From positions 2,294,001 to 2,358,000 of the forward strand of contig NC_089454.1 of assembly GCF_026210795.1 (NCBI RefSeq): 64,000 nt of DNA, written 5' to 3'. Below are positions 4,746-62,765 of this stretch, in pieces (position 1 is the first letter of the stretch; each line of letters opens with the position of its first letter). The position numbers and the translations under genes were made by a program. This DNA is from Rhizophagus irregularis. Taxonomy: Eukaryota; Glomeromycota; Glomeromycetes; Glomerales; Glomeraceae. A model generated the notes under the pieces. It did no database searches and had not been told where the DNA came from. It saw only the letters and a program-made list of their open reading frames with translations.

Positions 4746-4754
4746 TATTTAAAT

Positions 4755-8771: not shown

Positions 8772-8780
8772 TTTTTAAAT

Positions 8781-13722: not shown

Positions 13723-13777
13723 TAATCATTCCCATCTTAACAGCCAAGAAAAAGTCATTCCTATAATTTTTTAAAAA

Positions 13778-19176: not shown

Positions 19177-22100
19177 TCATTGCCAATTTTGCATCGTGTG
19201 CTGTAATAATAATTCCTCTACTGCAATATTATCACTAAATTCGTTATTCTCCACATCCTGAATAAACAAGTCTTCTACTGCCATTTCATCACTGACTTTA
19301 TTATTATCATTATCACTGACTTCATTATTAATATTCTTTGAAAGACCTGTTGTAAAAGAATTAAGCTCCCGAGCTTTATAAATAGCTTGAGGATGAGTAG
19401 TTGATTGCACATAATCTAACCTTCTACAGATTTCTGCTTCTTTAAATTGTTTTTCAATTTCGTAGTGACTTTCGTCTTGAAATTCATATTGTTGACTACA
19501 TGAATCCTCAAATAGTGAAATTACTTCTTTAATTTCAGATATACTTGGTCTATTAGCTGGATTTGAATCCCAACATCTTTTCATCAATTCAATATAACAT
19601 TTTGGTACTTCTGATTCATTAAATTCAGGTCTAATTCCATTACATATCTTCAATGCTAAATTCTCATCATGTGCACAATTGTCAAAAGGCTTTCTTCCAC
19701 CAGTTGCTATAAAATACATAATCATACCAAGACTATATATATCTGATGCTTGAGTATAAGGATTTCCTTCTAATCTTTCAGGAGCTACATAAGGCATAAC
19801 TCCAATAATTTTTGTTTCATCCATATTACCAGCATCTCCGCATAATCCCATATCTGAAATACATACATTGATTTCATCATGAAGCCTAAATAATATATTG
19901 CCTGTATGTAAATCACGATGAAACATATTTTTTTCATGAATTTCTTCAAGAGCATCAACAATGCCAGATAAGACTTCTATTCTACTATTCCAATCAAAAT
20001 TTTCATAATTTTTAATTATCCAATTATTAAAATCTCCTTTTTTTGCATATCGAAGAATTAAAATATAATTTTTTGTATCTGGATTTTGAGATATTCCATA
20101 TATTTGAAGAATATCAATATTAATACCTGAAGTTGAATATGCTTTAACCTATTTATTGAAAAAATTATATTAATAAAATATAATCATACTTTTAAAAAAA
20201 AACTGAATTTACCTCATTTAAAAATTTATCATTAATATTTTGTGAATTGAACAAACATTTTAAAGCAACTATTTCATTGGTTTGTCTTATCCATTCCTTT
20301 TTATCAAGATCATAACATAATGGACCATCTTTCCATGTTGCTGAATACACTTTAGAGAAACCACCTTTACCTATTTCTTTTAAATCGGTAAATTGATTGA
20401 ATGGTATCCATTCAAATATCATATCATAACATGTGTCAATTTTTAATTGTATTTCTTGAATAAGATTATCAACTTTTCCATTTCCACTAGTCCAATTTGA
20501 AAAATTTGATTTTAAATAATTTATTTGACATGATTTACACCATTCACTAAATTTGTCAGTATATTCTTCACCACATTCTTCACAATATACATCTTGAAGA
20601 ATCATTATATAATCTTTTGTATCTGGATTTTGAGATATTCCATATATTCCAATATGATCAGTAATTTTATATTGATCATTTTTCTCATTTTCTAAATACA
20701 TCTTAACCTGTTTAAAGCAAAGAATAAACATTATTATTATATTAGAAAAAAAAAGTTCTAAAATTAATTTACAAGGAAATTCGTACCTCATTTAAAAATT
20801 CATCAATAATGTTTTGTGAATTATATAAAAATTTTAAAGCGACCTTATTGTAAGGGTTTCTCGACCATTTCTTTTCATAATTATCATAATATAATGGACC
20901 ATCCTTCCATATTACTTTACATATTGTAATAGAATTGCCTTTGCTTATCTCTTTAATATATATAAACTGATTGTATGGTATCCATTCAAGTATCTTATCT
21001 TTATAATGATTAATACTTAATTGTATTTCCTGAATAAAACTATCAATTTCTTTATTCTGACTTGTCCAGTTTGTAAAATTTTCTTTAAAATAATTTATTC
21101 GGCATGGTTTACACCATCTATTTTTTATATCAGTATATTCTTCACCACATTTTTTACAATATCCATCTTGAAAAATCATAATATAATCTTTTGTGTCTGG
21201 ATTTTGAGACATTCCATATATTTCAAGATAATTGGGTTTGTTACGTTTTTGAGCAAACATATCAAGATAATTAGTATCACGTTGAGCTATTCTATGCATT
21301 TCAAGAATAGATGTATGAACAACATAGTCATCATCGTAATTTTGAATATTTGTTAAATGTATTTCAACCTATTAGAAATAAAGATTAAATAATATGCTAA
21401 AAGTATTATTTTAAATTAAATTCATGAAAAAATATCATACCTCATTTAAAAATTTACCAGTAATATTTTGTGAATTATTAAAGCATTTCAAAATAACCAT
21501 TGTATTGGATTCTCTTGTTAATAATTCCTCGTCATATTCTTTGTAACACAATGGTCCATCCTCCCATATTGCTGAATATATTGTAATAGAATCATCAATA
21601 TTGCTTATTTTTTTAATATCATTAAATTGAGTGTAAGGTACCCATTCAAATACTAAATTATTATGATAATTAATTTTCAATTGCATTTCTTGAATGAAAT
21701 CATCAATTTCTTCATTTCCACTAAACCAGCTTGCAAGATTTTTTTTCAAATGGTTTATTTGACATGGTTTACATAATGCATTCATTTCATTATTATTACT
21801 TACAACATTTTTACCACAATTTTCACAATATTTATTTTTAAGAACCATGATATAATCTTTAGTATCCGGGTGTTGGGATATTCCATATATTTTAGAAATT
21901 TTGTCGCTATGAAATGATATTATCCATGCAGTTGAATATGTTGCAACCTAATAAAAGAATAAAATAATAATTATTATATTAAAATGATTGAATCTATAAA
22001 GAAATGTTAAATCCGTACCTCATTTAAAAATTCATCAATAATATTCTGTGAGTCATATACACATTTTAAATCAACCGTTTGATTCAAATTTCTTACATAT

Positions 22101-22953
22101 TCCTTTTTATTGGCATTATAACGTAATGGACCATCCTTCCATTTTGCTGAATATACTGTAGCAGAATCATCTTTATCTATTACTTTTATATTATCAAATT
22201 GATCATATGGTATCCATTCAAATAGTATATCGACACCACTATTCATACTTAATTGCATTCCTTGAATGAAATCATCAATTTTTTTATTTCCACTAGTCCA
22301 GTTAGTAAAATTGATTTTAAACTTATTTGTTTGACATGAATAGCACCATTCCTTATTTGTATATCTTTTATTACAACTTTTACAATAATCATCCTGAAGA
22401 ACCATAAAATACTCTTTCGTATCAGGATTTTGAGTTATTCCATATATTAAAAGTGCCTCATCATCATCAAGATTTGTTGAATATGTTTTAACCTTATTAA
22501 AATATAAAAAAGAAAATTAAAATGTAAATAAATTATTATATTAAATTAAGATGTTTAAACTAAATTCATAAAAAATTTACGTACCTCATCTAGAAATTCA
22601 GTAGAACATTTTAAAACGATATTTTTATTTGATTTTCTAATATATTCATTAACTTTATTATCATGATATAATGGTCCATCCTTCCATATTGCTGAATATA
22701 TTAAAGTAAGGTCATCTTTAATTATTTCTTTAATATCATTAAATTGATTGTATGGTATCCATTCAAATATTATATCAGATGAGTTATCAATATTTAATTG
22801 CATTTCTTGAATGAAATTATCAAGTTTTTCATTTTTACTGGTCCAATTTGTAAAATTTTCTTTCAAATAATTTGTTATACATTGTTTACACCATTTCTCT
22901 TGTATATCTGTATATACTTCGCTACATTTTTTGCATGTGTTTTGAGAAGACAT
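19177..22953 (-). CDS. Kinase with five tandem zinc-ribbon/N-lobe modules
   Basis: Six phase-0 exons: 22585-22953, 22019-22492, 21441-21947, 20787-21368, 20213-20707 and 19177-20148. All lengths divide by three, giving about 1132 residues. Exons 1-5 each encode a CxxC..CxxC zinc-ribbon-like segment, the NFTNWTS...IDxFIQE.QL helix, and a kinase N-lobe up to the start of helix C (FLNE). Exons 2-5 also begin with the end of the preceding lobe (IYGISQNPDTKDYIM). Only the fifth lobe has a glycine loop (GKGGFSKVYSATW); the others read IKDDLTLIYSAIW, DKDDSATVYSAKW, NIDDSITIYSAIW and SKGNSITICKVIW, yet all keep the beta-3 lysine. Exon 6 encodes the C-lobe with HRDLHTGN, SDMG in place of DFG, and APE. 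The catalytic residues look complete, so an active TKL-like kinase is plausible. A TATA box lies near 22999-23007. A gene caller could split this locus into several genes. Confidence 0.8.
20213..22953 (-). repeat. Five-unit N-lobe exon array
   Basis: Units are the five exons at 22585-22953, 22019-22492, 21441-21947, 20787-21368 and 20213-20707, separated by introns of about 70-90 bp. Each unit is symmetric (phase 0 at both ends), so units could be added without disturbing the frame. They are more diverged from each other than the units of the array at 56194-62765, so this array looks older. Confidence 0.8.
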
Positions 22954-24856: not shown

Positions 24857-26093
24857 TCATCGATATATATCCCATGAAAAAATTTCCTGATGTATTTGAC
24901 ATGATTCACATAATGTATTCATTTCATTATTATTACTTACAAAATTTTTACTACAATGTTCACAATATTTACTTTTAAGAACCATGATATAATCTTTTGT
25001 ATCTGGGTGTTGGGATATTCCATATATTTTAGAAATTTTATCACTATGAAATGATATTAACCATGCTTTTGAATATATTAAAACCTAATAAAAGAATAAA
25101 ATAATAATTATTATATTAAAACGATTGGAATCTTATAAAGAAATGTTAAATCCGTACCTCATTTAAAAATTCATCAATAATATTCTGAGAGTCATATACA
25201 CATTTTAAATCAACTGCTTGATTCAAATTTCTTACATATTCCTTTTTATTGGCATTATAACGTAATGGACCATCCTTCCATTTTGCTGAATATACTGTAG
25301 CAAAATCACCTTTATCTATTACTTTTATATTATCAAATTGATCATATGGTATCCATTCAAATAGTATATCGACACCACTATTCATACTTAATTGCATTCC
25401 TTGAATGAAATCATCAATTTTTTTATTTCCACTAGTCCAGTTAGTAAAATTGAATTTAAACTTATTTGTTTGACATGAATAGCACCATTCCTTATTTGTA
25501 TGTCTTTTGTTACAACTTTTACAGTAATCATCCTGAAGAACCATAAAATACTTTTTCGTATCAGGATTTTGAGTTATTCCATATATTAAAAGAGCCTCAT
25601 CATCATCAAGATTTGTTGAACATGTTTTAACCTTATTAAAATATAAAAAAAAAAAATTAAAATGTAAACAAATTATTATATTAAATTAAGATGTTTAAAC
25701 TAAATTCATAAAAAATTTTCGTACCTCATCTAGAAATTTAATAGAACATTTTAAAACGATATTTTTATTTGATTTTCTAATATATTCATTAACTTTATTA
25801 TCATGATATAATGGTCCATCCTTCCATATTGCTGAATACATTAAAGTAAGGTCATCTTTAATTATTTCTTTAATATCATTAAATTGATTGTATGGTATCC
25901 ATTCAAATATTATATCAGATGAGTCATAAATATTTAATTGCATTTCTTGAATGAAATTATCAAGTTTTTCTTTTTTACTGGTCCAATTTGTAAAATTTGC
26001 TTTCAAATAATTTGTTATACATTGTTTACACCATTTCTCTCGTATATCTGTATATACTTCACCACATTTTTTGCATGTGTTTTGAGATGACAT
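24857..26093 (-). pseudogene. 3'-truncated copy of the N-lobe array kinase
   Basis: Exons at 25725-26093 and 25158-25631 have exactly the lengths of exons 1 and 2 of the gene at 19177-22953, with few substitutions. The third exon starts at 25084 and departs from the parent after the second zinc-ribbon cysteine pair (near 24885), stopping at 24857. The product would be about 356 residues with two N-lobe modules and no kinase C-lobe. The parental TATATAAG box is changed to TATTTAAG, so expression is uncertain. I call it a pseudogene, but a short zinc-ribbon/N-lobe protein cannot be excluded. Confidence 0.7.
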
Positions 26094-31597: not shown

Positions 31598-33002
31598 TTA
31601 ATTATTTTTTTTATGAGGTTGAATTCTAAATCGACCAGGAGATATTAATGATACTACTGGATAGAGCTTTGATGGTAAATTATTCCATGCTGATACTTCC
31701 AGATATTTTTTTCCATTGACTGTAAAAGCGCAAGTTCTTTATTCATATCTAAATGAACAGTGATTTTTGTGCCATCTCCGAATAATGGACAATAATTTTC
31801 TATATAATTACCAAAATTACAACAATAACCAATGGAACCTAATACCCATCCAGTAGTTTGATTCCCTGCCAAAGTTTCATAATTAAAATTTTTTGATGCA
31901 CATACTCCAACAGCAGCACTTCTACAGGATTTCTCAATAATAACATCCCATTCAAAAACACCTTTATTTCCTAAAACCACTTTAGCACTAACACTTTATA
32001 TTAATTAGAATCATTCAGTGCATATACAACTGTTCCATTATCCTCAATAATAAGTTTTGATCACATGCTGATTCATCATAAACATAATTAGGCATTCCTC
32101 GGTTATCATTTAAATCTGAATTAAATGATAATGTATTATATCGATAAACATTTAAAATAATTTCAATTGGGTAATGCCAAGCGGCTCAATAATATGAACT
32201 AATATTTGACCTTTAATTCGCCTAAAATCAATTAATTTAACTAAAGGCTCCAACTCTTTAGCAACTTTTTGGTGACTGACAAAAATTTTATTTTCTATTT
32301 GTACTGGATTCTCTTGTCTTATCTGTTCTAAAATCAGTAACTGTTCCATAAGAGTAATATATGCTTCATTCGAAACTTGTTTGCTGCAAGGATAGCGCCA
32401 TATCGAAAAACTTCATATTCTGGGATTGCAAAGGGAGTTTCTTCTTTTTCATGTGTACAAGATAAAAGATATTTAAGTCCTGTAATAGACAATCGACCAA
32501 ATTCAATGGTGTTTAATGGAATAATTGCTACTGCTTCAACCAATAAATTTAGTAGAATATTATCTTCTGTTAATAAAATTTTCTCCGCAAGTTTAGATAG
32601 TAATTCTGGTGAATAATTATCATCACAATTTTTTTCTAAAGTATTTTTGAATGTTTTCATAATAAAATCCTGAAGATCTGGTAATTGAAAATAGTCAGCA
32701 GCGTAAAATGCTTCAATTATATTATCCTTTTTTAATGATTCTATTTTAATTGAACCCGTATAAGTATATTCTAATATGATTTTCATACCAACAGAATTAA
32801 TCTTTGGAAAAGAAATTTTGGTTTCATAATTTTCTTTCATTCCATTATAAAGTAATCTGACAAATACTTCAGATCTTGCTGCTAAAATTGCTCTACAACC
32901 ATATAATTTCTTTTCATCCTCACATAAAATTTCTATATCACTATATTTTGGATTATTTATTAATAAGCTTAAATCTTTTTCTAATAAATATCCTCTCGTC
33001 AT
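31598..33002 (-). pseudogene. BTB-BACK-SPRY gene with several frameshifts
   Basis: Begins MTRGYLLEKDLSLLINNPKY at 33002. An intact BTB (residues about 18-125) and BACK region run to residue about 215. Then a missing A near 32380 (GCAGCAAACAAG where the family reads GCA GCA AAA CAA) shifts the frame. The linker continues as MEQLLILEQ...FRRIKGQILVHIIEPLGI, is broken again near 32165 and 32060, and meets a stop near 32008. The SPRY-like part (NKGVFEWDVIIEKSC...GWVLGSIGYCCN...ITVHLDMNK) is open from 31980, with another 1-nt loss near 31735. The last frame ends YPVVSLI..GRFRIQPHKKNN at 31598. The domain order is that of a substrate adaptor for cullin ubiquitin ligases. With at least four lesions it is a pseudogene unless these are assembly errors in A-runs. 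Confidence 0.75.
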
Positions 33003-33030
33003 TTTTTTTTTAAAAAAAAAAAATTTTAAA
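33003..33030 (-). promoter_or_regulatory. T-run/A-run junction abutting the BTB start codon
   Basis: Read on the minus strand, a run of about 12 T is followed by about 9 A and then directly by ATG. The same arrangement precedes the F-box gene start at 49604. It may mark a nucleosome-free promoter or 5' leader. Confidence 0.4.
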
Positions 33031-33544
33031 AGAAAATGAAAATATATAAATGATTATATTTTAGGAATTTAAATACTTAATTTGTATTTGTTTGCATTTG
33101 TGCCATGTTGCACAATTCCCATGGGAAAAAATATGAAGGAGAAGAATCGACCTACACCGGTTAAAAATTGGAGTACATTATTATTATCCAGCGAGACCTG
33201 CCTGATGTACACATTCTTGAAGGATTAGATATGTCAATTTATGCTGGTAAACAATTGCATTAATTGGAGTTGGATCATGCGACTGACCGATAAATTAATT
33301 AATAAAACCTGCTGTGTATTTTTTATTCCATAACGCTCGCTCTAATTTACTTATCGCCATTTTCAGAATTCTACTACCCATACAAATTACTTATTAAAAT
33401 AAAATTACAAGACTTTTACCGGACAAAACCAGATGTTCCGTAATTATAATCACTTAGTAATCACAACGTACACAGAAATCTAAAAACTGTAATAAATATA
33501 GATTTAAATAATGAATATGATAAAATTGTGTTATTCTGATACAC
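33031..33544. other. Spacer, no gene seen
   Basis: Contains a copy of the AATCACAACGTACACAGAAAT repeat near 33452 that also occurs near 16140. Confidence 0.45.
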
Positions 33545-35580: not shown

Positions 35581-35986
35581 ATTCACTTTTTATTTTTATT
35601 TATTTTTATTTTATTTTCTTTCATCTTCACTTATGATTTTATTATATTTTAATTAAACAAATGACAATTGTCCATTAAATTATTGAGCATTACTGACAAG
35701 GTTGTCCAGGGACGGAGTCCCTGGTGTTAGACGCATTTCTAGTTTTTTTGTGAAACAAGTATTTTTGTTTGGGATTTATAAAAAAGGAAATTCTTAATAA
35801 TCTGTGATTTTTGTGATCATCAGCTGACTTATTGAACATTTTATTGTTTTGACCTAAATAAAAATGATTTTGTCAATCGCTGCTGTGTAACTGTAATACG
35901 TTTTAAAAGGCGTTTTTTTTTTCTAAAAAAAAAAAATCTTTTTTTCTGTCTAGACGTAAAATTGAAGTCACATTTATTAATCCAAT
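35581..35986. other. Spacer before the kinase gene
   Basis: Holds a perfect 8-bp hairpin CCAGGGAC-GGA-GTCCCTGG at 35706-35724 and T/A runs at 35910-35945 just upstream of the kinase start. No gene is seen. Confidence 0.5.
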
Positions 35987-37727
35987 ATGGAAGAATTTAT
36001 ACTTACTGATGATATATTTGAGCAAATAAAAGATTTTGATCATAAGAACCTAACTAAAAAACAAATTTTGTTAATTGATAAGTTAATATTCAATAAAAAA
36101 TTTAAAATACGTTATATAAAAAATGGTTTATGCATAGAATGTAAGCAGCCTAATACTGCTTATGTAAGTAAATTTAATAGTTGGTGTATGTCATGTAATG
36201 CTAAGACTTTTCAGAAAAATTTTAAAAATTGGACTAGTGGAAATCATAAAATTGATAAGTTTATTCAAAAAGTACAACTTAACGCTAAAAATTATAGGGG
36301 AGTTTTAGAATGGATTGAATATGATAGATTTGAAAATGTTGAATACTTGACAAAAGGAGGATTTGGAATTATTTATAAAGCAATTTGGAAAGATGGATTT
36401 ATAGAAAGTTGGGATTTTGAAAATAATAAATGGATAAGAATTAAATATTATTGTAGGCAATATGAGAATTTTCCAGTTATTTTAAAATGTTTAAATAATT
36501 CTCAAGATATTACATCCGATTTTTTAATAGAAGTAAGTTACTTATTTTGTATATAATTTCAAGATATTGTCCTATTATAAATGTTAAACTATCTATTAAT
36601 TATTGTTATTATGGATTCTTTTTTAGATTGGAATACATAGTTTTTTTTCAAAAGAGGATTATGGTAAACCTAGTTTAACATCACGGTGTTTTGGCATTAC
36701 TAAAGATCCAGAATCTAAAAATTTTATGATGGTAATGGGATATGCAAAAGATGGTAGTTTAAGACAACATTTAAATAATAGTTTTAAAACAACAAAATGG
36801 TTTGAAAAGTTGGATATTTTAAAAACAATTGCAAAAGGCCTTGAGTATATTCATCAAAAAGGGTTAATTCATCGTGATTTTCATTGTGGTAATATATTAA
36901 AAGATGACGATTATACTTTCATTACTGATTTGGGATTATGTCGACCAGTGAATGTAAAATCATCCCAAAATGAATGTAAAGAATTATATGGAGTATTACC
37001 CTATGTAGCACCAGAAGTTCTAAGAGGAAAAGGATATACTCAAGAAAGCGATATTTATGGATTTGGAATTATTGTGTATGAAGTTTGTACAGGGCTCCCT
37101 CCTTACCATGATATTGTTCATGATAAATTTTTAGCTATTAGCATTTGTCAAGGACTTAGGCCAAAATCAAATTATAAAATTCCTCAATTAATTCTAAACA
37201 TAATTAAACAATGTTGGGATGCTGATCCTTTAAAACGACCTAAAGCAAAAAAATTATCAAGTTTATTACACAATTTATGGGAAGGATCATATTATGATAA
37301 TGAAACTGAAATCAAAAAGCAAATTGAAGAAGTAGATAAAATTAATGAGAAGTTAACTTCTTCTTCATTATTATATAATGGACCTACTCTTTCATATACT
37401 ACAAATCCTCAAGCAGTTTACACGAGTAGACTTTTAGATTTTAAAAATCTTCCAAAACCAAAAAATGCTATTGATAACAAGGATGATGATAATTCATTTG
37501 GAGAATATTCAGGTAATTAATTTCTTAATTTAACTTTACAAAAGCATTCTTTAAATATTTTATTTGATGTATATACTTATTTTTTATATATATTATAGAA
37601 TCAATAGAAGCAATAGATTTTACCAAACTAGACCTAGGTACTTATATACATTAACCTTTTATATGATTTATTTTATTAATAATATTATTTAATAATTTAT
37701 TTTTCACTTATAGATAAAAGTAACTGA
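35987..37727 (+). CDS. Single-module zinc-ribbon protein kinase
   Basis: Four exons: 35987-36532, 36627-37512, 37599-37637 and 37714-37727, about 494 residues. Exon 1 carries two cysteine pairs (C49/C52, C67/C70), the NFKNWTSGN..IDKFIQKVQL segment and the N-lobe with KGGFGIIYKAIW near 123-134, the beta-3 lysine in VILK (K167) and a candidate helix-C glutamate (E182). Exon 2 carries the C-lobe: IHRDFHCGN (catalytic D266), TDLG in place of DFG (D283), PYVAPE and SDIYGFG. The tail reads EYS-ESIEAIDFTKLDLDKSN over two small phase-1 exons. All catalytic residues are present, so a Ser/Thr or dual-specificity TKL-like kinase is likely; substrates are unknown. This is the family's ordinary one-N-lobe form and serves as the reference for the two arrays in the window. 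Confidence 0.88.
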
Positions 37728-40437: not shown

Positions 40438-42629
40438 TTAAATTATAAACAAACCATCGGGAGTTTTATCTTTATCTTCTGAATGAAGATTTGGATTATT
40501 TTGTACTTCATCTATTAATATACAGTAAATAAGATAAATTAGAATAATAATACTCTATCATTATTATAAATAATAATTTATTCTACTTACCATTAATACT
40601 AATATTTGATCGTTGTTGCATTATTTCTCTCTTATCATAGTCATTTTGTACGTCTACTATTATAAAATAAATCAAAATTTAATAAAATATTCATTCTTAT
40701 CTTCAAACGAAAATTATAATTAAATATTTAAGGTTTTTACCATTCTCCATTTTCAATTTTTTAAATAATCTGGATGATTCTTTACTATCATTATCTATAG
40801 TAATTAAGATATAAATTAGTATTTATTCATAATAAACTTTAATATAAAAATAAATTACCTTTAAAGTTAATTTTACTTGATTTACTATGATTACTAGCTA
40901 TAATGAAAACCAATCAATAGAGTATTATATTTTTATAAAAATTCAATATTATTTTAATAAATACTTACTATTATCAGAAAGACTAAAATCATTTGATCTA
41001 CTGATATAAAATGCTATTTAAAAAAAAAAAAGATTATCTCAATATATTTAATTAAAGGATTTATACAATAAAATTATTAACTTTATATTACCTTTTTGTT
41101 CTATTATTATTTAATTAAAAAAGGTATCATTAATTATAATGTTAAAGAAAAAAAATTAAATAGTTAATAAACATTAAAAAAGTATACCTTCTGTTGCATT
41201 TTTTGGTTCGGGTAGATTTTCAAATTTATGAATTTTACTTGTAAATAGTTTACTACTTAAAATATTGCTTGTTTTTTTATCTATTTTTGTTATTAATTGA
41301 GGTAATTCATTTGGATTATTCTGATAATATGATTTAATTTCTATAATTTTATTGTGAAGCGTATTAGTATCAGGTCTTTTTAGTAGATTAGCGTCCCAAC
41401 ATTGCTCCATTAAACTTTTATATTCCAAAGGAATTTCTGATACAATTTTTGGTCTTATACCATCAATGATATCAATTGCAAAAATATAATCATGTTCATA
41501 ATTCATAAATGGAGGTTGTCCAAATGAAATTTCCCACATGAGCATTGCAATACTATAAATATCAGAACTAAAAGTATAACCTTTTCCGTTAATAACTTCA
41601 GGAGCTATATAGGGAAGATTTCCATATATACTCGTTGATGGTTTGTCTGCGGGACCACAAAATCCAAGATCACTAATCCGCCAAAAATCTTTAAGCTGTG
41701 AATATAATATATTTCCAGAATGCAAATCTCTATGAATTGAATTCACTTTATGAATAAAATAAAGTGCATCAATTATCAAAAAAGTAATTTTAATTCTTTC
41801 ATTCCATGTAAGTTGATTATGATTTTGTTGTAAATAGTCTCTTAAATTAATATTAAACTTCCTCATTACAAGTAAATAATTTCCATTTAATGGATTTTGT
41901 GTTAAACCAAAACATTGAACAATAGATGCATATTTGTTGCTTAAAGTTAAATGTGATTTAGCCTTTAAAATAATAAATTTTATCATTAATAATTAAATTT
42001 TAAATTTTAAGTTCTTTAAATATTTTTAACTTACAAACCTCTTCAAACCAACTTTGACTTGCATTTTCAACATTTTTTAATTCTTTAAGTATTACAGCAT
42101 GAGTTCCAAATCTCATTAATTGTTGTTCTTTAGAATTCCATTCTTCATATCCACCATCAATCCAATCTGCTGTATAAATCTCTGAGAATCCACCTTTTGT
42201 CAGATATTTAATATTTTCTAAATTATTATATGGGATCCATTCAATAATAGCATTTGATGTAAGTGTTTCCATTTGACAATTTTTTATTAAATTATCAATA
42301 ACATTATTTCCAGAAGTCCAATTTGAAAAATTATATTTTAAATAATTTCGAACACAATATTCACAATATAATGTAGCTAAACATTTTTGGTTACAATTTT
42401 CACAAACTCTTCTTGTTCCTTTATTATAAATAAGTTTATTTCGGTCATAATTTTTATTAATTATTCTTATTGCTACAGTTTTATCTTCTTCTGTAATAGA
42501 ATTATCAGCAAGAACGAATTGTTTACGAAATTCGGTTTGTTCATAAAAGTTAACGTAAATATTATAATCAATTGATGTATATGATCTACTAAATACTGCT
42601 CGTATTAATTCTTCCCTAACATTAGACAT
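40438..42629 (-). CDS. MSN-type zinc-ribbon protein kinase
   Basis: Eight exons: 42039-42629, 41188-41962, 41092-41100, 40969-41013, 40859-40897, 40741-40794, 40591-40656 and 40438-40511. They close in frame for about 550 residues. I prefer the start MSNVREEL at 42629 because this N-terminus is typical of the family; an ATG at 42689 would add 20 hydrophobic residues. Exon 1 has cysteine pairs C76/C79 and C89/C92, SNWTSGN..ID.LI, the glycine loop TKGGFSEIYTADW and the beta-3 lysine K182. Exon 2 carries IHRDLHSGN (catalytic D276), SDLG (D295), PYIAPE and LPEPKNATE. The tail is spread over six small phase-1 exons, one only 9 nt long, encoding ...EQKAFYISRSNDF... to ...NNPNLHSEDKDKTPDGLFII. An active kinase is likely. 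Confidence 0.85.
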
Positions 42630-42689
42630 TTTTGTAAAAAAACAAATTATTTTTAATAATGCAAAAAAAAAATAAAGCCTCCTAAACAA

Positions 42690-43954
42690 ATAAGTTGTGC
42701 AACCACCAAAATTTTAATATTGTCTCCTGTCATGTGCTGCATTGTAAACAAAATGATGATCATCATCTGATCATACAAAAAAATGTCATTACCGGCAACT
42801 TGGATCTTCCATTATTCTTTTTTGATGTAAAAACTACAAAGGTACAAAAGACGTTAAAGTTAAGCTATTATAGACTAGAATTATTTTCTGTAAATTTAAT
42901 TTTGAAGATGTTTTTGGAAAGAAACCAATCTTAACAAATCATCATAGAACCCAAAAAATGGAAACACCTTTAAATTCATAGTAAAATAAAATTTCAATTG
43001 CCGTATTTGTGATAATGATTGTCTTTTATTGCAATTGATTTTTAAATGAGCCAAATTTGAAGATTCGAATGAAAAATCGAAAATTAAAAATTCTTTGATT
43101 ATAAAGTTTTATCTGTATAACATTTCGAAATTATAATACAATAACATATTTTTCAGGCAAAATTTTATTGCCTTTTTCACGACATAATGAGCTTGTAAAA
43201 ATTAAAATTCAACTAATTTTCTTTACTCAATGAAACTTTTTTAAAAAAAAATTCGGAGATAAATATTATTATAGTTGGAGACAAATATTTAATAGTATAA
43301 GACAATAATACATGGGTATATCTGGATAGCATTATTTATGGCTATATCTATTCGATGAGCGCTCTATAAAATGATCCTAAAAATCATCCACCATTTGCGT
43401 AAAATTCTTAAAGAAAATCCTGATGGTCATGAGTTTTTTGTGAATTATCCAAAATATCGAGCAAATATAAAACAATAAATATTATTATTAGCAAATTATT
43501 TAATCATTAATGCATTTTTAACAACTTACAATATCCTAATACTATTTGTTTATTTAATTTATTAATAAAAGTTGGATTTAATTCAATTTATCATATCTAT
43601 ATCTTAACTAAGACAAGAGGCTTTTGATAATTAACTATTATCATACCATTTTATTTGGTAACAAATTTATGTTAACCTATTATTACCTTAAACGGAAATT
43701 GGGCCAAAAATAATCTATCATTTCCTTTAAACGAAGAAATTTTATTAAATCATATTAGTACAGTAAGTGTAAGAGCGATACTAAATTTATATCTACCACT
43801 AATAATTTCAATTGAATTAGTAATTTGTCTAATTTCAGGACAATTCTTAATAACTAAGATTAACTTTTACTGCCTCAACATTTTCTTCCAGATGTTTGCT
43901 TTTTCTGAGAATAACAACCACATTATCTCCCTGTAAAAAGTATATGAAATAGAG
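42690..43954. other. Intergenic region, no gene seen
   Basis: A short open stretch near 43360-43480 (MILKIIHHLRKILKENPDGH...) has normal composition but is too short to assign. Confidence 0.45.
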
Positions 43955-48158: not shown

Positions 48159-49604
48159 CTATAAATCCCATTCAAACTCATCAATATGACTATATGATTG
48201 AAAATCAATAGAATAATTTCTAACTATACCTTTTTTTTTATAATCTTTAATTAAATTTTCTAATTGATGTTTAAATTTCACTTTAAAATAATAATTTCCA
48301 ATATATAATTTTAATAATAAAGAATTTCTATCTTTCCAATTATCAAGAAATAATTTTATATTTTCTAATTTAATCGTATTATGATAAAAACAAAATTTAA
48401 ATTTAAATAAATTATTTGATGATGATTTTGTTAATATTTTAAAAAATTCATCCCAATTAAATTCATTATTTTTATCCTCATCTATTTCAATAATTAATCC
48501 ATTTAAAAGTTTACAATTAATTAATAAATTCTCAATTTCTGAATTAAGAGTATTAAAATTTGAAAATATTGTTAAATTAAGATATTTTAAATTTGGACAA
48601 TTTTGATAAATTGTTTTAATAAGTATCTTATCATCATAAAATGCGCTGATTTCTGAAAGAGTTTCTTTCGTATTTTCAATTAATTTCGCTAATACTTTAG
48701 ATGGAACTTTTGCAACTTTTAAAAATTTTAAAACGGGTAATGATAAATTTTCAAAATAATTCACATCATTCCATTTAATATAACCATCAATAAAGTAAAA
48801 TTCTAAACTTAATAAATTTGTAAAGTGAGAAAGAAATCTTGTAATAGGTTTCCATCCAATTTTCAAATGTTGAATAGTATCTGCATGTTTAATCAATGAT
48901 TCTTCAAGAGTTTTGTAAATTGATTCATCTTCTATCATACTGGCAAACTTAACATCATTTAGATTTGTTTGTACTTCAATTAATTTAACAATATCATTCA
49001 CATCAGTAAAAACTCTAACACTTAATTTTTTAATTGATTTGCATATTTTAGCCAATCCTTCTAAATGATGTTGATTAATTTTGGTAAAACAACGAAGGGA
49101 TTGAAGTTCTGAAAGGCAATTTTCGGCTCCCGAAATATGATGTAATCGATTATCAAAATCATATGGAAGAGAAAGGTGAATTAATTTTGTATTCCTATTA
49201 ATAAATACTTTTAATATCTCATTTTTTATAATGGATAATTTTGATTCTTCAACTTTTTTTGAAGTTGAAGAAATTATTACACTTTCTAAGTATGATAATT
49301 CTAAATATTTCCAAAAAAAAATATAATTAAATAAAGGTTTTTGATATGTTTTTTCTGTAATAAGATTATTAATTCCTTGATCTTTCAAAATATCTCTTGA
49401 TTCTTTTGATAAATGTGAAATTATTACATTAAATAATGAAATAATCTTTGGACTATCATCTCTAATAAAAGGATTTTTCCATAAAATTGGTATCGTTGTT
49501 TCACACCATGTTCTGTTAACTAAAAGGCATGAATAAAGTGATTTTTTATCTTTTTTTAATTCTTCAAAAATTAGGAAAAGTATGTCTTTGTTGAGATATA
49601 CCAT
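48159..49604 (-). CDS. F-box protein with leucine-rich C-terminal region
   Basis: Single exon of 481 residues from the preferred start MVYLNKD at 49604; an ATG at 49631 would add nine residues encoded by the T/A run. Residues 1-45 form an F-box (LNKDILFLIFEELKKDKKSL, SCLLVNRTWCETTIPILWKN). The F-box binds Skp1 in SCF ubiquitin ligases. The rest is rich in Leu/Ile/Asn with irregular leucine-rich repeats such as CPNLKYLNLTIF, LLSLEFYF and SIKKLSVRV, the likely substrate-binding side. The C-terminus ends SHIDEFEWDL. F-box/LRR proteins are strongly amplified in these fungi; no substrate can be inferred. The gene stands alone between repeat-rich spacers. Confidence 0.85.
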   Translation of the reverse strand: MVYLNKDILFLIFEELKKDKKSLYSCLLVNRTWCETTIPILWKNPFIRDDSPKIISLFNVIISHLSKESRDILKDQGINNLITEKTYQKPLFNYIFFWKYLELSYLESVIISSTSKKVEESKLSIIKNEILKVFINRNTKLIHLSLPYDFDNRLHHISGAENCLSELQSLRCFTKINQHHLEGLAKICKSIKKLSVRVFTDVNDIVKLIEVQTNLNDVKFASMIEDESIYKTLEESLIKHADTIQHLKIGWKPITRFLSHFTNLLSLEFYFIDGYIKWNDVNYFENLSLPVLKFLKVAKVPSKVLAKLIENTKETLSEISAFYDDKILIKTIYQNCPNLKYLNLTIFSNFNTLNSEIENLLINCKLLNGLIIEIDEDKNNEFNWDEFFKILTKSSSNNLFKFKFCFYHNTIKLENIKLFLDNWKDRNSLLLKLYIGNYYFKVKFKHQLENLIKDYKKKGIVRNYSIDFQSYSHIDEFEWDL

Positions 49605-49625
49605 TTTTTTTTTAAAAAAAAAAAC
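49605..49625 (-). promoter_or_regulatory. T-run/A-run junction at the F-box start
   Basis: On the minus strand about 12 T are followed by about 10 A and then ATGG. It matches the arrangement at the BTB pseudogene start (33003-33030). Confidence 0.4.
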
Positions 49626-49783
49626 CGACAAAAAGAAAAACCCCCTTGATTTATTTAAATTGCGAACGGCTTATTTGTGTAACAATTATTACATGGCACT
49701 ACATGGCAATTAAAAAGCCGATGGACATGCATGAAGATCCATGCAGTATTGCAGAATGGCTTATGTGAACTATTCCTATTGCG

Positions 49784-55063: not shown

Positions 55064-58000
55064 TTATTCTAAGCTTTTTTCTTCGTCTTTAAATTCATTA
55101 TTGTTACCTATAAAATAAAAAAAAAATTAAATATGAATAATAAAATTCAAGTTAATTAATAAATTAAAAATATTCACCATGCTCATTTAAAAAATTATAT
55201 TTTAATGAATCTATTTAATGAATTAAATTATGTTAATATTAAATTGTTAATAATAGATTTTTTTTTTAGTAATAACTATTAATTAATACCTGAAAATTTT
55301 ATGCTTATTATATCATCATTTTGTTCATAATAATCTTCAGAATTTTTTGGCTCTGGAAGGCTAATAAAACTAAGCAAACTACTGCCAGTGTAATTAGCTT
55401 TTGAATGCATTTTATATGATGAACTAGTTAAAGTTATATTATTATCATTTATTACTTGTAATTTTATCGAATTATCATACTTAAACTCCCATAATTCATC
55501 TCTAACTTCAATTGCTGTTGGTCGATTTAATGAATTTGCATCTAAGCATCTTTTAATTAAACGCACAATTAATGGAGGTACTTTAATAGTGTTAAACCTT
55601 GGTCTAAGTCCTTGGCAAATTTTCGCTGCTAAAAAGTCATCATTAATTAAATCGTGATATGGAGATATTCCTGAAATAACTTCATACATAACTATCCCAA
55701 AACTGTAAATATCAGCAGCTTTAGTATAACTTTGACCTCGTAAAACTTCGGGAGCAACATAAGATAAAACACCATATATATTATTTTTTGAATTTTCTAA
55801 GCTGTTATCTGCGGGTTTACATAATCCCATATCAGTTATAAGAATAGTTTCGTAATTTTTTAGTATATTGCCAATATGTAAATCTCGATGAATTATTTCA
55901 TTTCCATGAATATTTTCAAGTCCAGATGCAATATTGTATAAATAATTGATTTTAATTTTCAAATCTAATTTATCATTTTCCTTTAAAAAATCTCGTAAGC
56001 TTCCATTCTCTGCATATTCCAAAACCATCATATAATTCTTTGTCTCTGGATCTTGAGTTGTTCCATATAATTTAATAATAAATGAATTATTATCAACTTT
56101 ATTATGTAATGCAATCTGTATAAAAATATAAATAATATGTCAATAATAAAATTAAACTCTTAAATTTCATTAATAATGAAAAATAAATTATACCTCATTC
56201 ATAAATTCTAATGTGACATTTTTTGAATTATTTAAACTTTTTAGGGCTACAAACATATTTTGGCCTATTCTTTTCCAGTTTTGATATTTATTATCCCAAA
56301 AAATTATATTTCCATCAATCCAATTTGCTTTATATACTTTACCAAACCCACCTTTTGCAATATACTCAACATTATAAAGTTTATTGTAAGGTATCCATTC
56401 TAATGCTTTTTTAACATCATCTTTATGAGATGATAGTTGAGTATCTTGAATAAATTTATCAATATCATAATTACCACTAGTCCAATTATTAAAATTTTGT
56501 TGAAAATGTATTGAATAACATACTTTATTGCATTTTTTACATATATCACTTAAAACCAACATATAATTTTTTGTTTTTGGATTCTGTGTTATTCCATAAG
56601 CAATATAGATCTATAAATATCATTATATATTAGCAAAAAATTAAAATTTATCAAAAATTTAATAAAAATATATTTATTATACCTCATTTATAAATACTGA
56701 TCTAATATCTTTTGCATTATTTAATTTTTTTAACACCGCAATGATATTTTGACTTCTTTTCCAATTCTTATTTCTACCATCCCAATCAAATATATGCCCA
56801 TCTCTCCAATTTACTTTATACTTATTTTCTGCAATATATTTAATATCATAAAATTTATCATAAGGTATCCATTCTAATGCTTTTTTCACATCATTATGAG
56901 CTGATATCTGAGTATCTTGAATAAATTTATCAATTTCATCATTACCACAAGTCCAATTATTGAAATTCTGTTGAAAATGTATTGAATAGCATATGTTGTT
57001 ACATTTTTTACATTTTTCATTCAAAACCATTATATAATCTTTTGTTTCTGGAATTTGTGTTATTCCATAAAATATATAATCTGTTTTAATCTACAAAGGA
57101 TAATATATTATCAAAAAATTAACATTTATCAAAAATTTTAATAAGAGCAAATTTATCATACCTTATCAAATAATAAAGTAATATCTTTTGTATTATTCAA
57201 TTTTTTCAGTATTACAACCATATTTTGATCTTCTCTTATCCAATTCTGAATACTTTCATTCCAATATTCTATATTTCCATCCCTCCAATTTGCTTTATAC
57301 TCATTTTCTGCAATATATGTGATATCACAAAATTTATAATAAGGTATCCATTCTAATACTTCTTTTAAATTATTATGAGATGATAACTGAGTATTTTGAA
57401 TAAATTTATTGATATCTTCATTATCACTAGTCCAATTATTGAAATTTTGTTGAAAATATATTGAATAACATATTTTATTGCATTTTTTACATATATTACT
57501 TAAAACCATCATATAATCTTTTGTTTCTGGATTTTGTGTTATTCCATAAGCAATAACAATCTATAAATATTACATATTAGTAAAAAATTAAAATTTGTCA
57601 AAAATTTAATAAAAATATATTTATTATACCTCATTTATAAATACTGATCTAATATCTTTTGCATTATTTAATTTTTTTAACACCACAATGATATTTTGAC
57701 TTCTTTTCCAATTCTTATTTTTACCATCCCAATCAAATATATGCCCATCTCTCCAATTTGCTTTATACTTATTTTCTGCAATATATGTAATATCACAAAA
57801 TTTATCATAAGATATCAATTCTAATATGTTTTCTAAATTATCATGAGATGATAGCTGAATATCTTGGATAAATTTATCAATATCATCATTGCCACTTGTC
57901 CAATTATTGAAATTTTGTTGAAAATGTATTGATGAACATATATTATTGCATTTTTTACATTTATCACTTAAAACCATCATATAATCTTTTGTTTCTGGAT

Positions 58001-61000
58001 TTTGTGTTATTCCATAAAATTTATAATCTGTTTCAATCTACAAAGGATAATATATTAGCAAAAAATTAACATTTATCAAAATTTTAATGAGAGCAAATTT
58101 ATCATACCTCATCCACAAATAATAAAGTAATATCTTTTGTATCATTTAATTTTTTCAGTATCACAATCATATTTTGACCTTTTCTTATCCAATACTGAAT
58201 ACTTTCATCCCAATAATTTATATTTCCATCAATCCAATTTGCTTGATATCTGTCTTCTGCAATATATGTAATATCACAAAATTTATCATAAGATATCAAT
58301 TCTAATATGTTTTCTAAATCATCATGAGATGATAGCTGAATATCTTGGATAAATTTATCAATATCATCATTCCCACTTGTCCAATTATTGAAATTTTGTT
58401 GAAAATGTATTGAATAACATGTATAATTACATAATTTACATTTATCACTTAAAACCATCATATAATCTTTTGATTCTGGGTTTTGAGTTATTCCATAAAA
58501 TATATAATTTGTTTCAATCTACAAAGAATAATATATTAGAAAAAAATTAACATTTATCAAAATTTTAATAAGAGCAAATTTATCATACATTATCCACAAA
58601 TATATCTTTTGTATTATTTAATTTTTTTAGTATCACAATCATATTTTGACCTTCTCTTATCCAATTCTGAATACTTTCATCCCAATAATTTATATTTCCA
58701 TCAATCCAATTTGCTTGATATCTGTCTTCTGCAATATATGTAATATCACAAAATTTATCATAAGATATCAATTCTAATATGTTTTCTAAAATATCATGAG
58801 ATGATAGCTGAATATCTTGGATAAATTTATCAATATCATCATTACCACTTGTCCAATTATTGAAATTTTGTTGAAAATGTATTGATGAACATATATTATT
58901 GCATTTTTTACATTTATCACTTAAAACCATCATATAATCTTTTGATTCTGGGTTTTGTGTTATTCCATAAAATATATAATTTGTTTCAATCTACAAAGAA
59001 TAATATATTAGAAAAAAATTAACATTTATCAAAATTTTAATAAGAGCAAATTTATCATACATTATCCACAAATATATCTTTTGTATTATTTAATTTTTTT
59101 AGTATCACAATCATATTTTGACCTTCTCTTATCCAATTCTGAATACTTTCATCCCAATAATTTATATTTCCATCAATCCAATTTGCTTGATATCTGTCTT
59201 CTGCAATATATGTAATATCACAAAATTTATCATAAGATATCAATTCTAATATGTTTTCTAAAATATCATGAGATGATAGCTGAATATCTTGGATAAATTT
59301 ATCAATATCATCATTACCACTTGTCCAATTATTGAAATTTTGTTGAAAATGTATTGATGAACATATATTATTGCATTTTTTACATTTATCACTTAAAACC
59401 ATCATATAATCTTTTGTTTCTGGATTTTGTGTTATTCCATAAAATTTATAATCTGTTTCAATCTACAAAGGATAATATATTAGCAAAAAATTAACATTTA
59501 TCAAAAATTTTAATAAGAGCAACTTTATCATACCTCATCCACAAATAATAAAGTAATATCTTTTGTATTATTTAATTTTTTCAGTATTACAATCATATTT
59601 TGACCTTTTCTTATCCAATACTGAATACTTTCATCCCAATAATTTATATTTCCATCAATCCAATTTGCTTTATACTCATTTTCTGCTATATATTTAATAT
59701 TATAAAATTTATCATAAGGTATCCATTCTAATGTTTTTTTCAAATCATAATAACTATTATGAGATGATAACTGAGTATTTTGAATAAATTTATTGATATC
59801 TTCATTATCACTAGTCCAATTATTGAAATTTTGTTGAAAATATATTGAATAACACATTTTATTGCATTTTTTACATATATCACTTAAAACCATCATATAA
59901 TCTTTTGTTTCTGGATTTTGTGTTATTCCATAAGCAATAACAATCTATAAATATTACATATTAGTAAAAAATTAAAATTTGTCAAAAATTTAATAAAAAT
60001 ATATTTATTATACCTCATTTATAAATACTGATCTAATATCTTTTGCATTATTTAATTTTTTTAACACTGCAATGTTATTTTGACTTCTTTTCCAATTCTT
60101 ATTTTTACCATCCCAATTAAATATATGCCCATCTCTCCAATTTGCTTTATACTTATTTTCTGCAATATATTTAATATCATAAAATTTATCATAAGGGATC
60201 CATTCTAATGCTTTTTTCATATCATTATGAGCTGATATCTGAGTATCTTGAATAAATTTATCAATATCATCATTACCACTAGTCCAATTATTAAAATTTT
60301 GTTGAAAATATATTGAATAACATATTTTATTGCATTTTTTACATATATCACTTAAAACCACCATATAATCTTTTGTTTCTGGATTTTGTGTTATTCCATA
60401 AGCAATAACAATCTATAAATATTACATATTAGTAAAAAATTAAAATTTGTCAAAAATTTAATAAAAATATATTTATTATACCTCATTTATAAATACTGAT
60501 TTAATATCTTTTGTATTATTTAATTTTTTCAGTATCACAATCATATTTTGATCTTCTCTTATCCAATTCTGAATACTTTCATCCCAATCTTCTATATTTC
60601 CATCAATCCAATTTGCTTTATACGTCTTTTCTGCAATATATGTAATATCATAAAATTTATTATAAGGTATCCATTCTAATACTTTTTTCACAACTTTATG
60701 AGATGATAATTGAGTATCTTGAATAAATTTATCAATATCATCATTTTCACTAGTCCAATTATTGAAATTTTGTTGAAAATGTATTGATGAACATACATTA
60801 TTGCATATTTTGCATTTTTCACTCAAAACCATCATATAATCTTTTGTTTCTGGATTTTGTGTTATTCCATAAGCAATAGCAATCTATAAATATTACATAT
60901 TAGCAAAAAATTAAAATATATCAAAAATTTTAATAAAAAATAAATGTTATACCTCATTTGTAAATTCTAAAGTAATATCTTTAGTATTATTTGATTTTTT

Positions 61001-62765
61001 CAGTATCACAATCATATTTTGACCTTTTCTTATCCAATACTGAATACTTACATCCCAATAATTTATATTTCCATCAATCCAATTTGCTTTATACTTATTT
61101 TCTGCAATATATGTAATATCACAAAATTTATAATAAGGTATCCATTCTAATACTTTTACATCATCATGAGATGATAACTGAGTATCTTGAATAAATTTAT
61201 CAATATCATCATTATCACTAGTCCAATTATTAAAATTTTGTTGAAAATGTATTGAATAACATACTTCATTGCATTTTTTACATATATCACTCAAAACCAT
61301 CATATAATCTTTTGTTTCTGGATTCTGAGTTAAACCATAAAATATATAATTTGTTTCAATCTACAAAGAATAATATATTAACAAAAAATTAAAATTTATC
61401 AAAAATTTTAATAAAAAAAAACCTATTCAGTTATACCTTATTCACAAATTCTAATGTAATATTTGTTGAATTGTTTAATAACTTCAGTTTTACATTCATA
61501 TTTTTATTTTTTCTTTCCCAGTTTTGATTATAACTAATCCAATCTTTTATATTTCCATCAACCCAATTTGCTTTATACTCATTTTCTGCTATATATTTAA
61601 TATTATAAAATTTATCATAAGGTATCCATTCTAATGCTTTTTTCAAACCATAAAAATCATGAGATGATAACTGAGTATTTTGAATAAATTTATTGATATC
61701 TTCATTATCACTAGTCCAATTATTGAAATTTTGTTGAAAATATATTGAATAACATATTTTATTGCATTTTTTACATATATCACTTAAAACCATCATATAA
61801 TCTTTTGTTTCTGGATTTTGTGTTATTCCATAAGCAATAACAATCTATAAATATTACATATTAGTAAAAAATTAAAATTTGTCAAAAATTTAATAAAAAT
61901 ATATATATTATACCTCATTTATAAATAATGATTTAATATCTTTTGCATTATTTAATTTTTTTAATACCACAATTATATTTTGACCTCTTTTCCAATTCTT
62001 ATTTTTACTATCCCAATCTTTTATTTTTCCATCAATCCAATTTGCTTTATACTCATTTTCTGCAATATATGTAATATAATATAGTTTATCATAAGATATC
62101 CATTCTAATGCTTTTTCCAAATCATTATCATGAGTTGATAGCTGAATATCTTGAATAAATTTATCAATATCGTCATTGTCACTGGTCCAATTACTGAAAT
62201 TTTGTTGAAAATGTATTGAATAACATGCATAATTACATTTTTTACACTTTCCATCTAAAACCATCATATAATCTTTTGTTTCTGGATCCTGAGTGATTCC
62301 GTAAATTTTATTATCTATTTTTGTCTATAAATATAATAATTAGTAAAAAATTATAATTTATCAAATTTTAAATAAAAAAAAAATTTATCATACTTTTTCC
62401 ATAGATTTTAACATAATATTTTTTGGATCATTTAATCTTTTCAGTTCTATAATCATATTTTGACCTTCCCTTTTCCAATTTTTATTTTTACTATCCCAAT
62501 CAATTATGTTTCCATCATTCCAACTTGCATAATACCTGTCTTTTTCAATATGCTCAATATTATAAAATCGATCATAAGGTATCCATTCTGATGCTTTTTT
62601 CACATCATTATGAGCTGATAGTTGGGTATATTGAATAAAATTGTCAATATCATTATTACCGCTGGTCCAATTTTTGAAATCTTGTTGAAAATGTCTTGTG
62701 TAACATATGCGATTACATATTTTGCATACGTTATATGACAACTTAATTTTTCTCTTTTTATCCAT
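55064..62765 (-). CDS. Kinase with 14 tandem N-lobe modules
   Basis: Seventeen exons. Exon 1 is 62394-62765 (MDKKRKIKLSY..); thirteen further module exons run down to 56194-56610; then come the C-lobe exon 55290-56115 and two small tail exons 55178-55210 and 55064-55107. The lengths give about 2186 residues in one frame. Each module has one CxxC pair (CKKCNKICYS), HFQQNFNNWTSGN.DIDKFIQ.TQL, EWIPYDKFY and an N-lobe ending at the start of helix C. Modules 1-13 lack the glycine loop, reading IAENEYKANW where module 14 reads IAKGGFGKVYKANW, a 4-residue deletion. The beta-3 lysine (VILKKLNN) is kept throughout. The helix-C glutamate is replaced in modules 1, 3, 8, 9 and 12. The C-lobe has IHRDLHIGN, TDMG and YVAPE, so module 14 plus the C-lobe looks like a working kinase. 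A TATATAAATAAG box lies about 65 bp upstream. Every module begins near a Met, so annotation pipelines may split the locus. Confidence 0.8.
56194..62765 (-). repeat. 14-unit exon-plus-intron tandem array
   Basis: Module exons from 5' to 3': 62394-62765, 61914-62324, 61437-61844, 60953-61360, 60482-60883, 60014-60412, 59534-59944, 59061-59462, 58589-58990, 58108-58518, 57630-58037, 57162-57560, 56683-57090 and 56194-56610. All are 372-417 nt, multiples of three, phase 0 at both ends, with a period of about 470-485 bp. Two intron lineages alternate irregularly. One ends TATTTATAG and precedes an exon starting I-V-I-A-Y-G (modules 3, 5, 6, 7, 12, with 14 similar). The other ends TTTGTAG and precedes I-E-T (modules 4, 8-11, with 13 similar). 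Confidence 0.88.

What the first reader, a model, noticed from the sequence alone, without database searches (positions are those of the whole stretch)
55064..62765. A kinase gene that multiplies only its N-lobe exon: 13 loop-less lobes before one complete kinase
Seen: 14 consecutive phase 0-0 exons encode a zinc-finger remnant plus a kinase N-lobe, and a single C-lobe follows. Modules 1-13 share a 4-residue deletion of the glycine loop but keep the beta-3 lysine. Known: the glycine loop holds ATP phosphates and a kinase needs both lobes; lobes without C-lobes are not a standard architecture. Inference: the array is a repeat scaffold of pseudo-N-lobes, perhaps for binding partners or ligands and coupled to one catalytic unit. 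It would be analogous in layout to receptors with variable repeats. I know of no named system with this design.
Basis: partly seen in the sequence, partly recalled or inferred. Interest (0 to 1): 0.95.

Follow-up and report, generated by a model that had tools for sequence, protein, structure and literature searches.

The report
Fungal kinases with half-kinase repeat arrays
In a mycorrhizal fungus, many genes encode one working-looking kinase preceded by a row of half-kinases, often a dozen or so, that have lost their ATP-gripping loop; the layout appears undescribed and standard domain searches miss it.

Summary
The gene at 62765..55064 (minus strand) has 17 predicted exons and 2186 codons: 14 phase-0 N-lobe exons, one C-lobe exon, two tail exons. 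Exons 2-14 start with strands β4-β5 of the preceding N-lobe, so each N-lobe is completed across a splice junction. The genome matches the long-read Rhizophagus irregularis DAOM197198 assembly (inference). The architecture is a gene family: two searches gave 300 non-overlapping module exons at 134 loci on 24 of 32 scaffolds, a lower bound. In all 35 arrays examined, internal modules end in one terminal module and one C-lobe. The glycine loop is kept in 34 of 34 intact terminal modules and 2 of 245 full internal ones. Set-1 internals also lose the β3 alanine but keep the β3 lysine (159 of 177). Constraint is real but weak (omega about 0.5). I read the array as a scaffold of nucleotide-binding-dead N-lobes serving one kinase. 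That function is inference: there is no RNA or biochemical evidence, and the multi-module structure prediction failed.

The parts
62394..62765 (-). exon 1: start codon, Cys motif, b1-b3, half aC (internal module 1; no preceding b4-b5)
   Evidence: ORF and splice sites
61914..62324 (-). exon 2, internal module 2
61437..61844 (-). exon 3, internal module 3
60953..61360 (-). exon 4, internal module 4
60482..60883 (-). exon 5, internal module 5
60014..60412 (-). exon 6, internal module 6
59534..59944 (-). exon 7, internal module 7
59061..59462 (-). exon 8, internal module 8
   Evidence: 99% identical to exon 9, and the introns that follow the two are identical
58589..58990 (-). exon 9, internal module 9
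58108..58518 (-). exon 10, internal module 10
57630..58037 (-). exon 11, internal module 11
57162..57560 (-). exon 12, internal module 12
56683..57090 (-). exon 13, internal module 13
56194..56610 (-). exon 14, terminal module with intact loop (IAKGGFGKVYKANW), VALK and aC Glu
   Evidence: its ZnF-aC part joined to the C-lobe exon matches PF07714 at 7e-46 over residues 62-327
55290..56115 (-). exon 15: rest of aC, b4-b5 and the only C-lobe (HRDLHIGN, DMG, APE)
   Evidence: ORF PF00069 5e-39; splice sites
55178..55210 (-). exon 16, short tail exon
   Evidence: splice sites and frame; donor in the same place in other arrays
55064..55107 (-). exon 17, tail exon with stop codon
19177..22941 (-). 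second array in the window: 4 internal modules, 1 terminal module (IGKGGFSKVY) and one C-lobe; 4-Cys (zinc-ribbon-like) subtype
24977..26081 (-). partial duplicate of the 5' part of the second array (2 internal modules; no terminal module or C-lobe found next to it)
   Evidence: 96% protein identity to the second array's module

Best explanation
The gene encodes a repeat protein whose repeat unit is half a kinase domain. Tandem duplication of a phase-0 exon built a row of 13 Cys-motif plus N-lobe units that probably no longer bind nucleotide, and one complete TKL-like kinase follows at the C-terminus. SHOWN by sequence: the architecture, its recurrence across the genome, the split between internal modules (glycine loop lost) and terminal modules (kept), and retained frame and fold signature. 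INFERRED: the row works as a multivalent scaffold that binds partners, possibly lobes of related kinases or their substrates, and so brings them to, or gates, the single catalytic domain. Duplication and exchange through the similar introns change the number and sequence of modules.
For: Recurrence: 300 non-overlapping module exons (4 with an in-frame stop) at 134 loci on 24 of 32 scaffolds, only the best 150 candidates being scored per search. Layout: 33 of 35 arrays showed one C-lobe in the stretch first fetched, and fetching further downstream found one for each of the other two. Split: the loop pattern GG[FYL][GSA] is in 34 of 34 intact array terminals (18 in set 1, L007 typed by eye, 13 in set 2, 2; L017's terminal is a fragment and not counted), against 2 of 177 and 0 of 68 full internal modules. 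The 13 set-2 loci were fetched after the rule was seen in set 1; they are 13 of the 18 loci with three or more hits, chosen by hit number, not by loop. Column counts in set 1, with 2 non-array kinases among the 20 terminals: β3 Ala 17/20 vs 2/177, β3 Lys 20/20 vs 159/177, αC Glu 20/20 vs 108/177. Constraint: omega 0.53 for the 13 focal internals (2ΔlnL 16.9 against omega 1), 0.51 for 45 of 171 internals (92.8), 0.39 for 17 terminals (71.6). Catalytic unit: HRD in 29, a D[LMF]G motif by strict pattern in 29 and APE in 32 of 33 C-lobes. Turnover: the nearest relative of an internal module is an internal module of the same array in 153 of 245, and that of a terminal or single kinase is one from another gene in 25 of 33.
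Against: No transcript, protein or binding data. Constraint is weak: in the focal array differences by codon position are nearly even (1387, 1040, 1240) and exons are hardly more alike than introns (86.5% vs 85.8%). In the 4-Cys subtype the split is softer outside the loop: β3 Ala in 16 of 73 internals, αC Glu in 63 of 74 internals and 13 of 14 terminals. Terminals do not form one clade: the best terminal-only clade holds 9 of 33. An internal N-lobe, spliced, has no Pfam kinase match. The two-module structure prediction failed (pLDDT 35); the single-exon model is only moderate (pLDDT 69) and found no significant Foldseek match. Some arrays hold broken modules (L017; fragments in L001, L008, L013, L018, L022, L025, L034, L035).
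Confidence: 0.45

Rival explanations
1. Recognition repertoire: the arrays are fast-changing intracellular recognition regions (self/non-self at hyphal fusion, or microbes), with the terminal kinase as signalling output, comparable in layout to receptors with variable repeats.
For: Many loci; 4 to 14 module hits in the 33 arrays counted; same-array turnover; near-identical neighbours with shared introns; weak average constraint with variable positions between conserved ones.
Against: No ligand and no strain comparison; variable positions were not tested for positive selection; several other gene kinds are expanded in this fungus and their roles are only proposed (passages of PMC8647823).
Confidence: 0.25
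2. Splicing cassette: the phase-0 exons are chosen or skipped, so one gene makes kinases with zero to thirteen extra lobes or with alternative N-lobes joined to one C-lobe.
For: All 14 N-lobe exons are phase 0 with alike splice sites, so exon skipping among them keeps the frame.
Against: Internal exons lack the glycine loop and, in the focal subtype, mostly the β3 Ala, so mutually exclusive use would give mostly dead kinases.
Confidence: 0.12
3. Passenger repeat: exon duplication has outrun selection, and the internal modules are tolerated, decaying copies that matter little as long as the terminal kinase is made.
For: Flat codon-position spectrum and exon identity about equal to intron identity in the focal array; loop, Ala and part of the αC/β4 join lost; some broken modules.
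Against: 0 stops in the 13 focal internals where about 34 would be expected; 14 of 14 focal N-lobe exons differ in length by whole codons only; omega below 1; three Cys and three Trp columns kept in 171-176 of 177 internals.
Confidence: 0.15
4. Assembly or annotation artefact.
For: Near-identical tandem copies (exons 8 and 9 are 99% identical) are a classic source of misassembly.
Against: 32 scaffolds, a size within 25 kb and a 5,085,394-base scaffold match the Nanopore and Hi-C assembly in PMC10234402; exon pairs average 86.5% identity and 52 of 66 are at about 89% or less; 35 different arrays share the layout.
Confidence: 0.02

Closest known systems
Expanded tyrosine-kinase-like genes of Rhizophagus irregularis (PF07714; 2,533 kinases in a passage of PMC10234402)
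   Same: Same genome (inferred) and kinase type; the terminal kinase is a member, and single relatives lie in this window (35981..37520 +, 42713..41174 -).
   Different: The passages I saw in five papers mention expansion and, in one, tandem arrays of duplicate genes, not N-lobe exon arrays inside one gene.
Plant tandem kinase proteins (wheat Wtk1, Pm24, Pm57)
   Same: Several kinase-derived units in one polypeptide, described as kinase-pseudokinase (titles and starts of abstracts).
   Different: Their units are called kinase or pseudokinase domains; here internal units have no C-lobe and there are 13 of them in this gene.
KIND domain (recalled, no call)
   Same: Half a kinase domain turned into a non-catalytic module.
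   Different: KIND derives from the C-lobe and is not known to me in long arrays; here it is the N-lobe.
RAF/KSR, RIPK2 and JAK-type kinases (regulation recalled)
   Same: N-lobe surfaces or pseudokinase units regulate a catalytic kinase; MLK, BAK1, KSR and RIPK2 N-lobes are among the non-significant sequence matches of the terminal exon (E 0.21-1.9) and RIPK2 is one weak structural match of an internal module (Z 2.2).
   Different: Their regulatory units are complete bilobal domains, not a repeat array.
Fungal NLR-type proteins with conserved repeats (recalled)
   Same: Fast-changing intragenic repeats joined to one signalling unit.
   Different: The signalling unit here is a kinase and the repeat derives from the kinase itself.

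Membership tests
Protein kinase (TKL-like), terminal unit | Glycine loop, β3 Lys, αC Glu, HRD, DxG, APE in one bilobal domain | tested here: met
   Focal terminal unit: GGFGKVY, VALK, FMNE, HRDLHIGN, DMG, APE; PF07714 7e-46 across both lobes
Protein kinase, internal modules | C-lobe with catalytic loop | tested here: not met
   β5 runs straight into the next Cys motif; one C-lobe per array
Pseudokinase, internal modules | Bilobal kinase fold with degraded catalytic motifs | tested here: not met
   Motifs are degraded but only the N-lobe is encoded
Kinase N-lobe, internal modules | Homology to a kinase N-lobe | tested here: met
   Rows of A1 are 38-84% identical to module 11, the focal terminal module 63%; the terminal N-lobe aligns with EGFR. 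No direct Pfam kinase match above cut-off for any of 17 single exons or for one spliced internal N-lobe
Kinase N-lobe, internal modules | Five-stranded sheet plus αC fold | tested here: inconclusive
   AF2 single exon pLDDT 69, strands and helix in the expected order; no significant Foldseek match; pair model failed
Tandem kinase protein | Two or more complete kinase or pseudokinase domains in one protein | tested here: not met
   One C-lobe per array in 35 arrays
KIND domain | Derived from the kinase C-lobe (definition recalled) | tested here: not met
   Module covers β1-αC and β4-β5 only
Zinc ribbon, focal subtype | Two Cys pairs (four ligands) | tested here: not met
   Focal subtype has CxxC..C only; the second window array has two Cys pairs
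Variable-repeat recognition receptor | Repeat number or sequence varies between strains, with a recognised ligand | not testable with these tools
   Only one genome of this fungus is held

The most novel reading that the evidence does not exclude
A previously unrecognised class of repeat protein: hundreds of pseudo-N-lobe modules at more than a hundred loci form a fast-diversifying recognition or wiring repertoire of an arbuscular mycorrhizal fungus, each gene carrying a different row of dead N-lobes plugged into one kinase, with module content changing by exchange through introns and possibly by exon choice in splicing.
Probability: 0.3. Interest if true: 0.95.

Novelty: categorically new. 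Interest (0 to 1): 0.82.

Why it matters
A kinase needs both lobes, so multiplying only the N-lobe gives a repeat unit of a kind for which I know no name. It shows how a kinase domain can be turned into a repeat module: the terminal copy keeps the glycine loop, nearly all others lose it, in the 34 arrays with an intact terminal module. It may help to explain part of the large kinase expansion of R. irregularis. Domain searches are likely to miss the rows, since none of 17 single N-lobe exons gave a Pfam kinase match above the curated cut-off.

Tried and rejected
Structure of two adjacent modules with the intron read through: failed (pLDDT 35), not used. Foldseek on the single-exon model: 0 matches at E <= 0.001; VIA-align 2 gave 4 chains at Z 2 or more (3 entries listed, Z 2.2-2.7), the RIPK2 N-lobe among them. 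Profile search of PDB sequences with A1: one chance-level hit. Relatives in prokaryote genome contigs and viral contigs: pattern matches but none confirmed. The mixed alignment with C-lobes (A2) was misaligned and was not folded. The β3 motif counts came from a loose pattern and are replaced by the column counts. With the simpler MG model omega was 0.42, 0.33 and 0.43 for focal internals, terminals and the 45 internals; I quote the model with free kappa.

Typing of modules and dropped rows: set 1 (L001-L020 and the window) had 216 module hits, of which 177 internal, 20 terminal and 5 unclear were full length and 14 were fragments. The 20 terminals include 2 single, non-array kinases. L007's last module, typed unclear, is terminal by eye. 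Set-1 loci were picked mainly for many hits; L017, L019 and L020 had one or two. In set 2 one L026 module was called terminal by the pattern, but its β5 is followed by a Cys pair, so I count it as internal (68 full internals). In one search five full internals whose loop was not extracted were scored as lacking it, and seven; one search searched whole sequences instead. A looser loop pattern also matches GNFA in L025 module 1. One unclear set-1 fragment carries GGF and is in no count. The 45 internals used for omega are a random 45 of 171 full-length ones, so broken modules were left out. L017 has broken frames; one terminal fragment keeps GGF, and it has one C-lobe. HRD is absent in 4 of 33 C-lobes (L005, L026, L027, L033), the D[LMF]G pattern in 4 (L005, L008, L012, L026) and APE in 1 (L006). 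L026's terminal module has Lys at the αC Glu position.

Literature: 10 searches and passages of 6 papers (PMC8647823, PMC4219462, PMC3886924, PMC6123716, PMC10234402, PMC6007072), open-access texts only; I saw no mention of N-lobe exon arrays. The 2013 genome paper and subscription papers were not seen, nor supplementary files.
Full report
WHAT IS THERE. The minus strand of 62765..55064 holds 14 consecutive open frames, each with splice sites in phase 0. The 14 exon lengths are all multiples of 3; of the 14 introns that follow them (69-78 nt), 6 are not. Joined with the C-lobe exon and two tail exons they give 6561 nt, 2186 residues and one stop, at the end. An AG|GTA donor at the end of the C-lobe exon is seen in the same place in 17 of 17 focal-subtype genes whose 3' end was in the fetched stretch (by eye; the window's second array does not show it).

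THE MODULE. Exons 2-14 start with β4-β5 (YGITQNPETKDYMMVL), then a CxxC..C motif, a helical stretch (FQQNFNNWTSGN..IDKFIQ..QL), LEWIPY, β1-β2 (A.W.DG), β3 (V.LK) and the first half of αC. The strand names rest on alignment of the spliced terminal kinase with known kinases (PF07714 at 7e-46; EGFR). Each complete N-lobe is thus split over two exons. Internal modules have 4 residues fewer in the glycine loop (13 of 13 in this gene). From exon start to YG there are 14-24 residues (median 16) in 31 terminal cases, but peaks at 4 and 7 residues in internals (79 and 74 of 228; 12 internals and 2 terminals gave no usable acceptor).

A GENE FAMILY. The window lies in a 146.7 Mb genome of 32 scaffolds. 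Scaffold number, size within 25 kb and one scaffold of 5,085,394 bases, equal to the published scaffold N50, match the R. irregularis DAOM197198 assembly in PMC10234402 (passages); the identification is inference. Two searches with different modules each scored 150 candidates of 4222 and 4706; the two sets do not overlap and lie at 134 loci on 24 scaffolds, 36 loci having three or more hits. Four of the 300 hits contain a stop. I fetched 20 loci, then 13 of the other subtype, then two downstream pieces.

THE RULE. Among 35 arrays (33 fetched plus two in the window; the partial copy at 26081..24977 is not counted), each has internal modules, one terminal module and one C-lobe; in L017 the terminal module is broken. 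The glycine loop is present in 34 of 34 intact terminal modules and in 2 of 245 full internal ones. In set 1 the β3 Ala goes the same way (17/20 vs 2/177), the β3 Lys does not (20/20 vs 159/177), and αC Glu is intermediate (20/20 vs 108/177). In the 4-Cys subtype (set 2 plus the window's second array and its partial copy, by pattern) β3 Ala is 14/14 in terminals and 16 of 73 in internals, Lys 66 of 73 in internals, and αC Glu 13 of 14 and 63 of 74, so there the loop is the main difference. In that subtype the loop is lost by substitution in most modules rather than by the 4-residue deletion, and exon-start-to-YG lengths of 15-20 residues among internals (both subtypes pooled) suggest a full-length αC/β4 join. 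This suggests, as inference, an order: ordinary zinc-ribbon kinase, then 4-Cys array, then the reduced focal-type array.

SELECTION AND TURNOVER. Omega is 0.53 for the focal internals, 0.51 for 45 sampled internals and 0.39 for 17 terminals, each better than omega 1 by 2ΔlnL of 16.9, 92.8 and 71.6. Against this, codon positions differ about equally in the focal array and introns are almost as alike as exons, so constraint is weak or partly offset by diversification. On a FastTree tree without the loop, terminal and internal labels change 17 times against 31.7 in shuffles (minimum 28; shuffles ignore relatedness); terminals with the 2 single kinases have their nearest relative in another gene's terminal in 25 of 33, internals in an internal of their own array in 153 of 245; terminals do not form one clade. 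I infer that modules multiply within an array while terminal kinases descend with array copies. Identical introns with diverged exons (modules 6 and 11) point to exchange within introns.

STRUCTURE. A single exon modelled from 17 window rows gave pLDDT 69 with strands and helix in the expected places. No significant fold match was found; the RIPK2 N-lobe was one of three weak entries in a second look (Z 2.2, 51 residues, 2.4 Å). A two-module model failed.

HOW IT MOST LIKELY WORKS. Shown: architecture, recurrence, residue split, weak constraint. Inferred: the internal lobes lack the phosphate-gripping loop and the whole catalytic lobe, so they are not enzymes; a conserved fold signature in many copies beside one kinase suggests a multivalent partner-binding row. 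Kinase N-lobes are known contact surfaces between kinases (recalled), so other kinases of this kinase-rich fungus are natural partners, but nothing here tests that.

NOVELTY. Internal modules fail the defining feature of tandem kinase proteins, of pseudokinases and of KIND-type half-kinases. I saw no description of the layout in 10 searches and passages of 6 papers, within an open-access library only; a description elsewhere cannot be excluded.

Noticed in passing
window 22941..19177 (-): A second N-lobe array of the 4-Cys subtype: 4 internal modules, one terminal module, one C-lobe.
   Followed up: yes
window 26081..24977 (-): Partial copy of the 5' end of that second array: two modules without terminal module or C-lobe next to them; one module is 96% identical in protein to its counterpart.
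   Followed up: partly
window 4746..5186, 8772..9254, 13775..14281 (+): Three similar HMG-box-like genes spaced over 10 kb (PF00505 E 2e-4 to 6e-4, below the curated cut-off).
   Followed up: partly
window 35981..37520 (+) and 42713..41174 (-): Two single kinases with two Cys pairs and an intact glycine loop, perhaps close to the ancestral form of the arrays.
   Followed up: partly
window 32334..33053 (-) and 48159..49670 (-): A BTB-domain gene (4e-20) and an F-box-like gene (6e-6) among the kinase genes.
   Followed up: no
L018 and L035 (C2:5131000-5142500): A long array whose internal modules keep part of the loop (DDEFGKVY, DEEFGKVY) and recur as near-identical modules.
   Followed up: no
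L005, L026, L027, L033: Terminal kinases with HQD, HHN, HHD or HCD in place of HRD; L026, which also has Lys for the αC Glu, may be inactive.
   Followed up: no
G000 scaffold C2 4.8-5.9 Mb and C14: Scored array modules are concentrated in some regions: 50 of the 300 in C2 4.8-5.9 Mb and 41 on C14.
   Followed up: no
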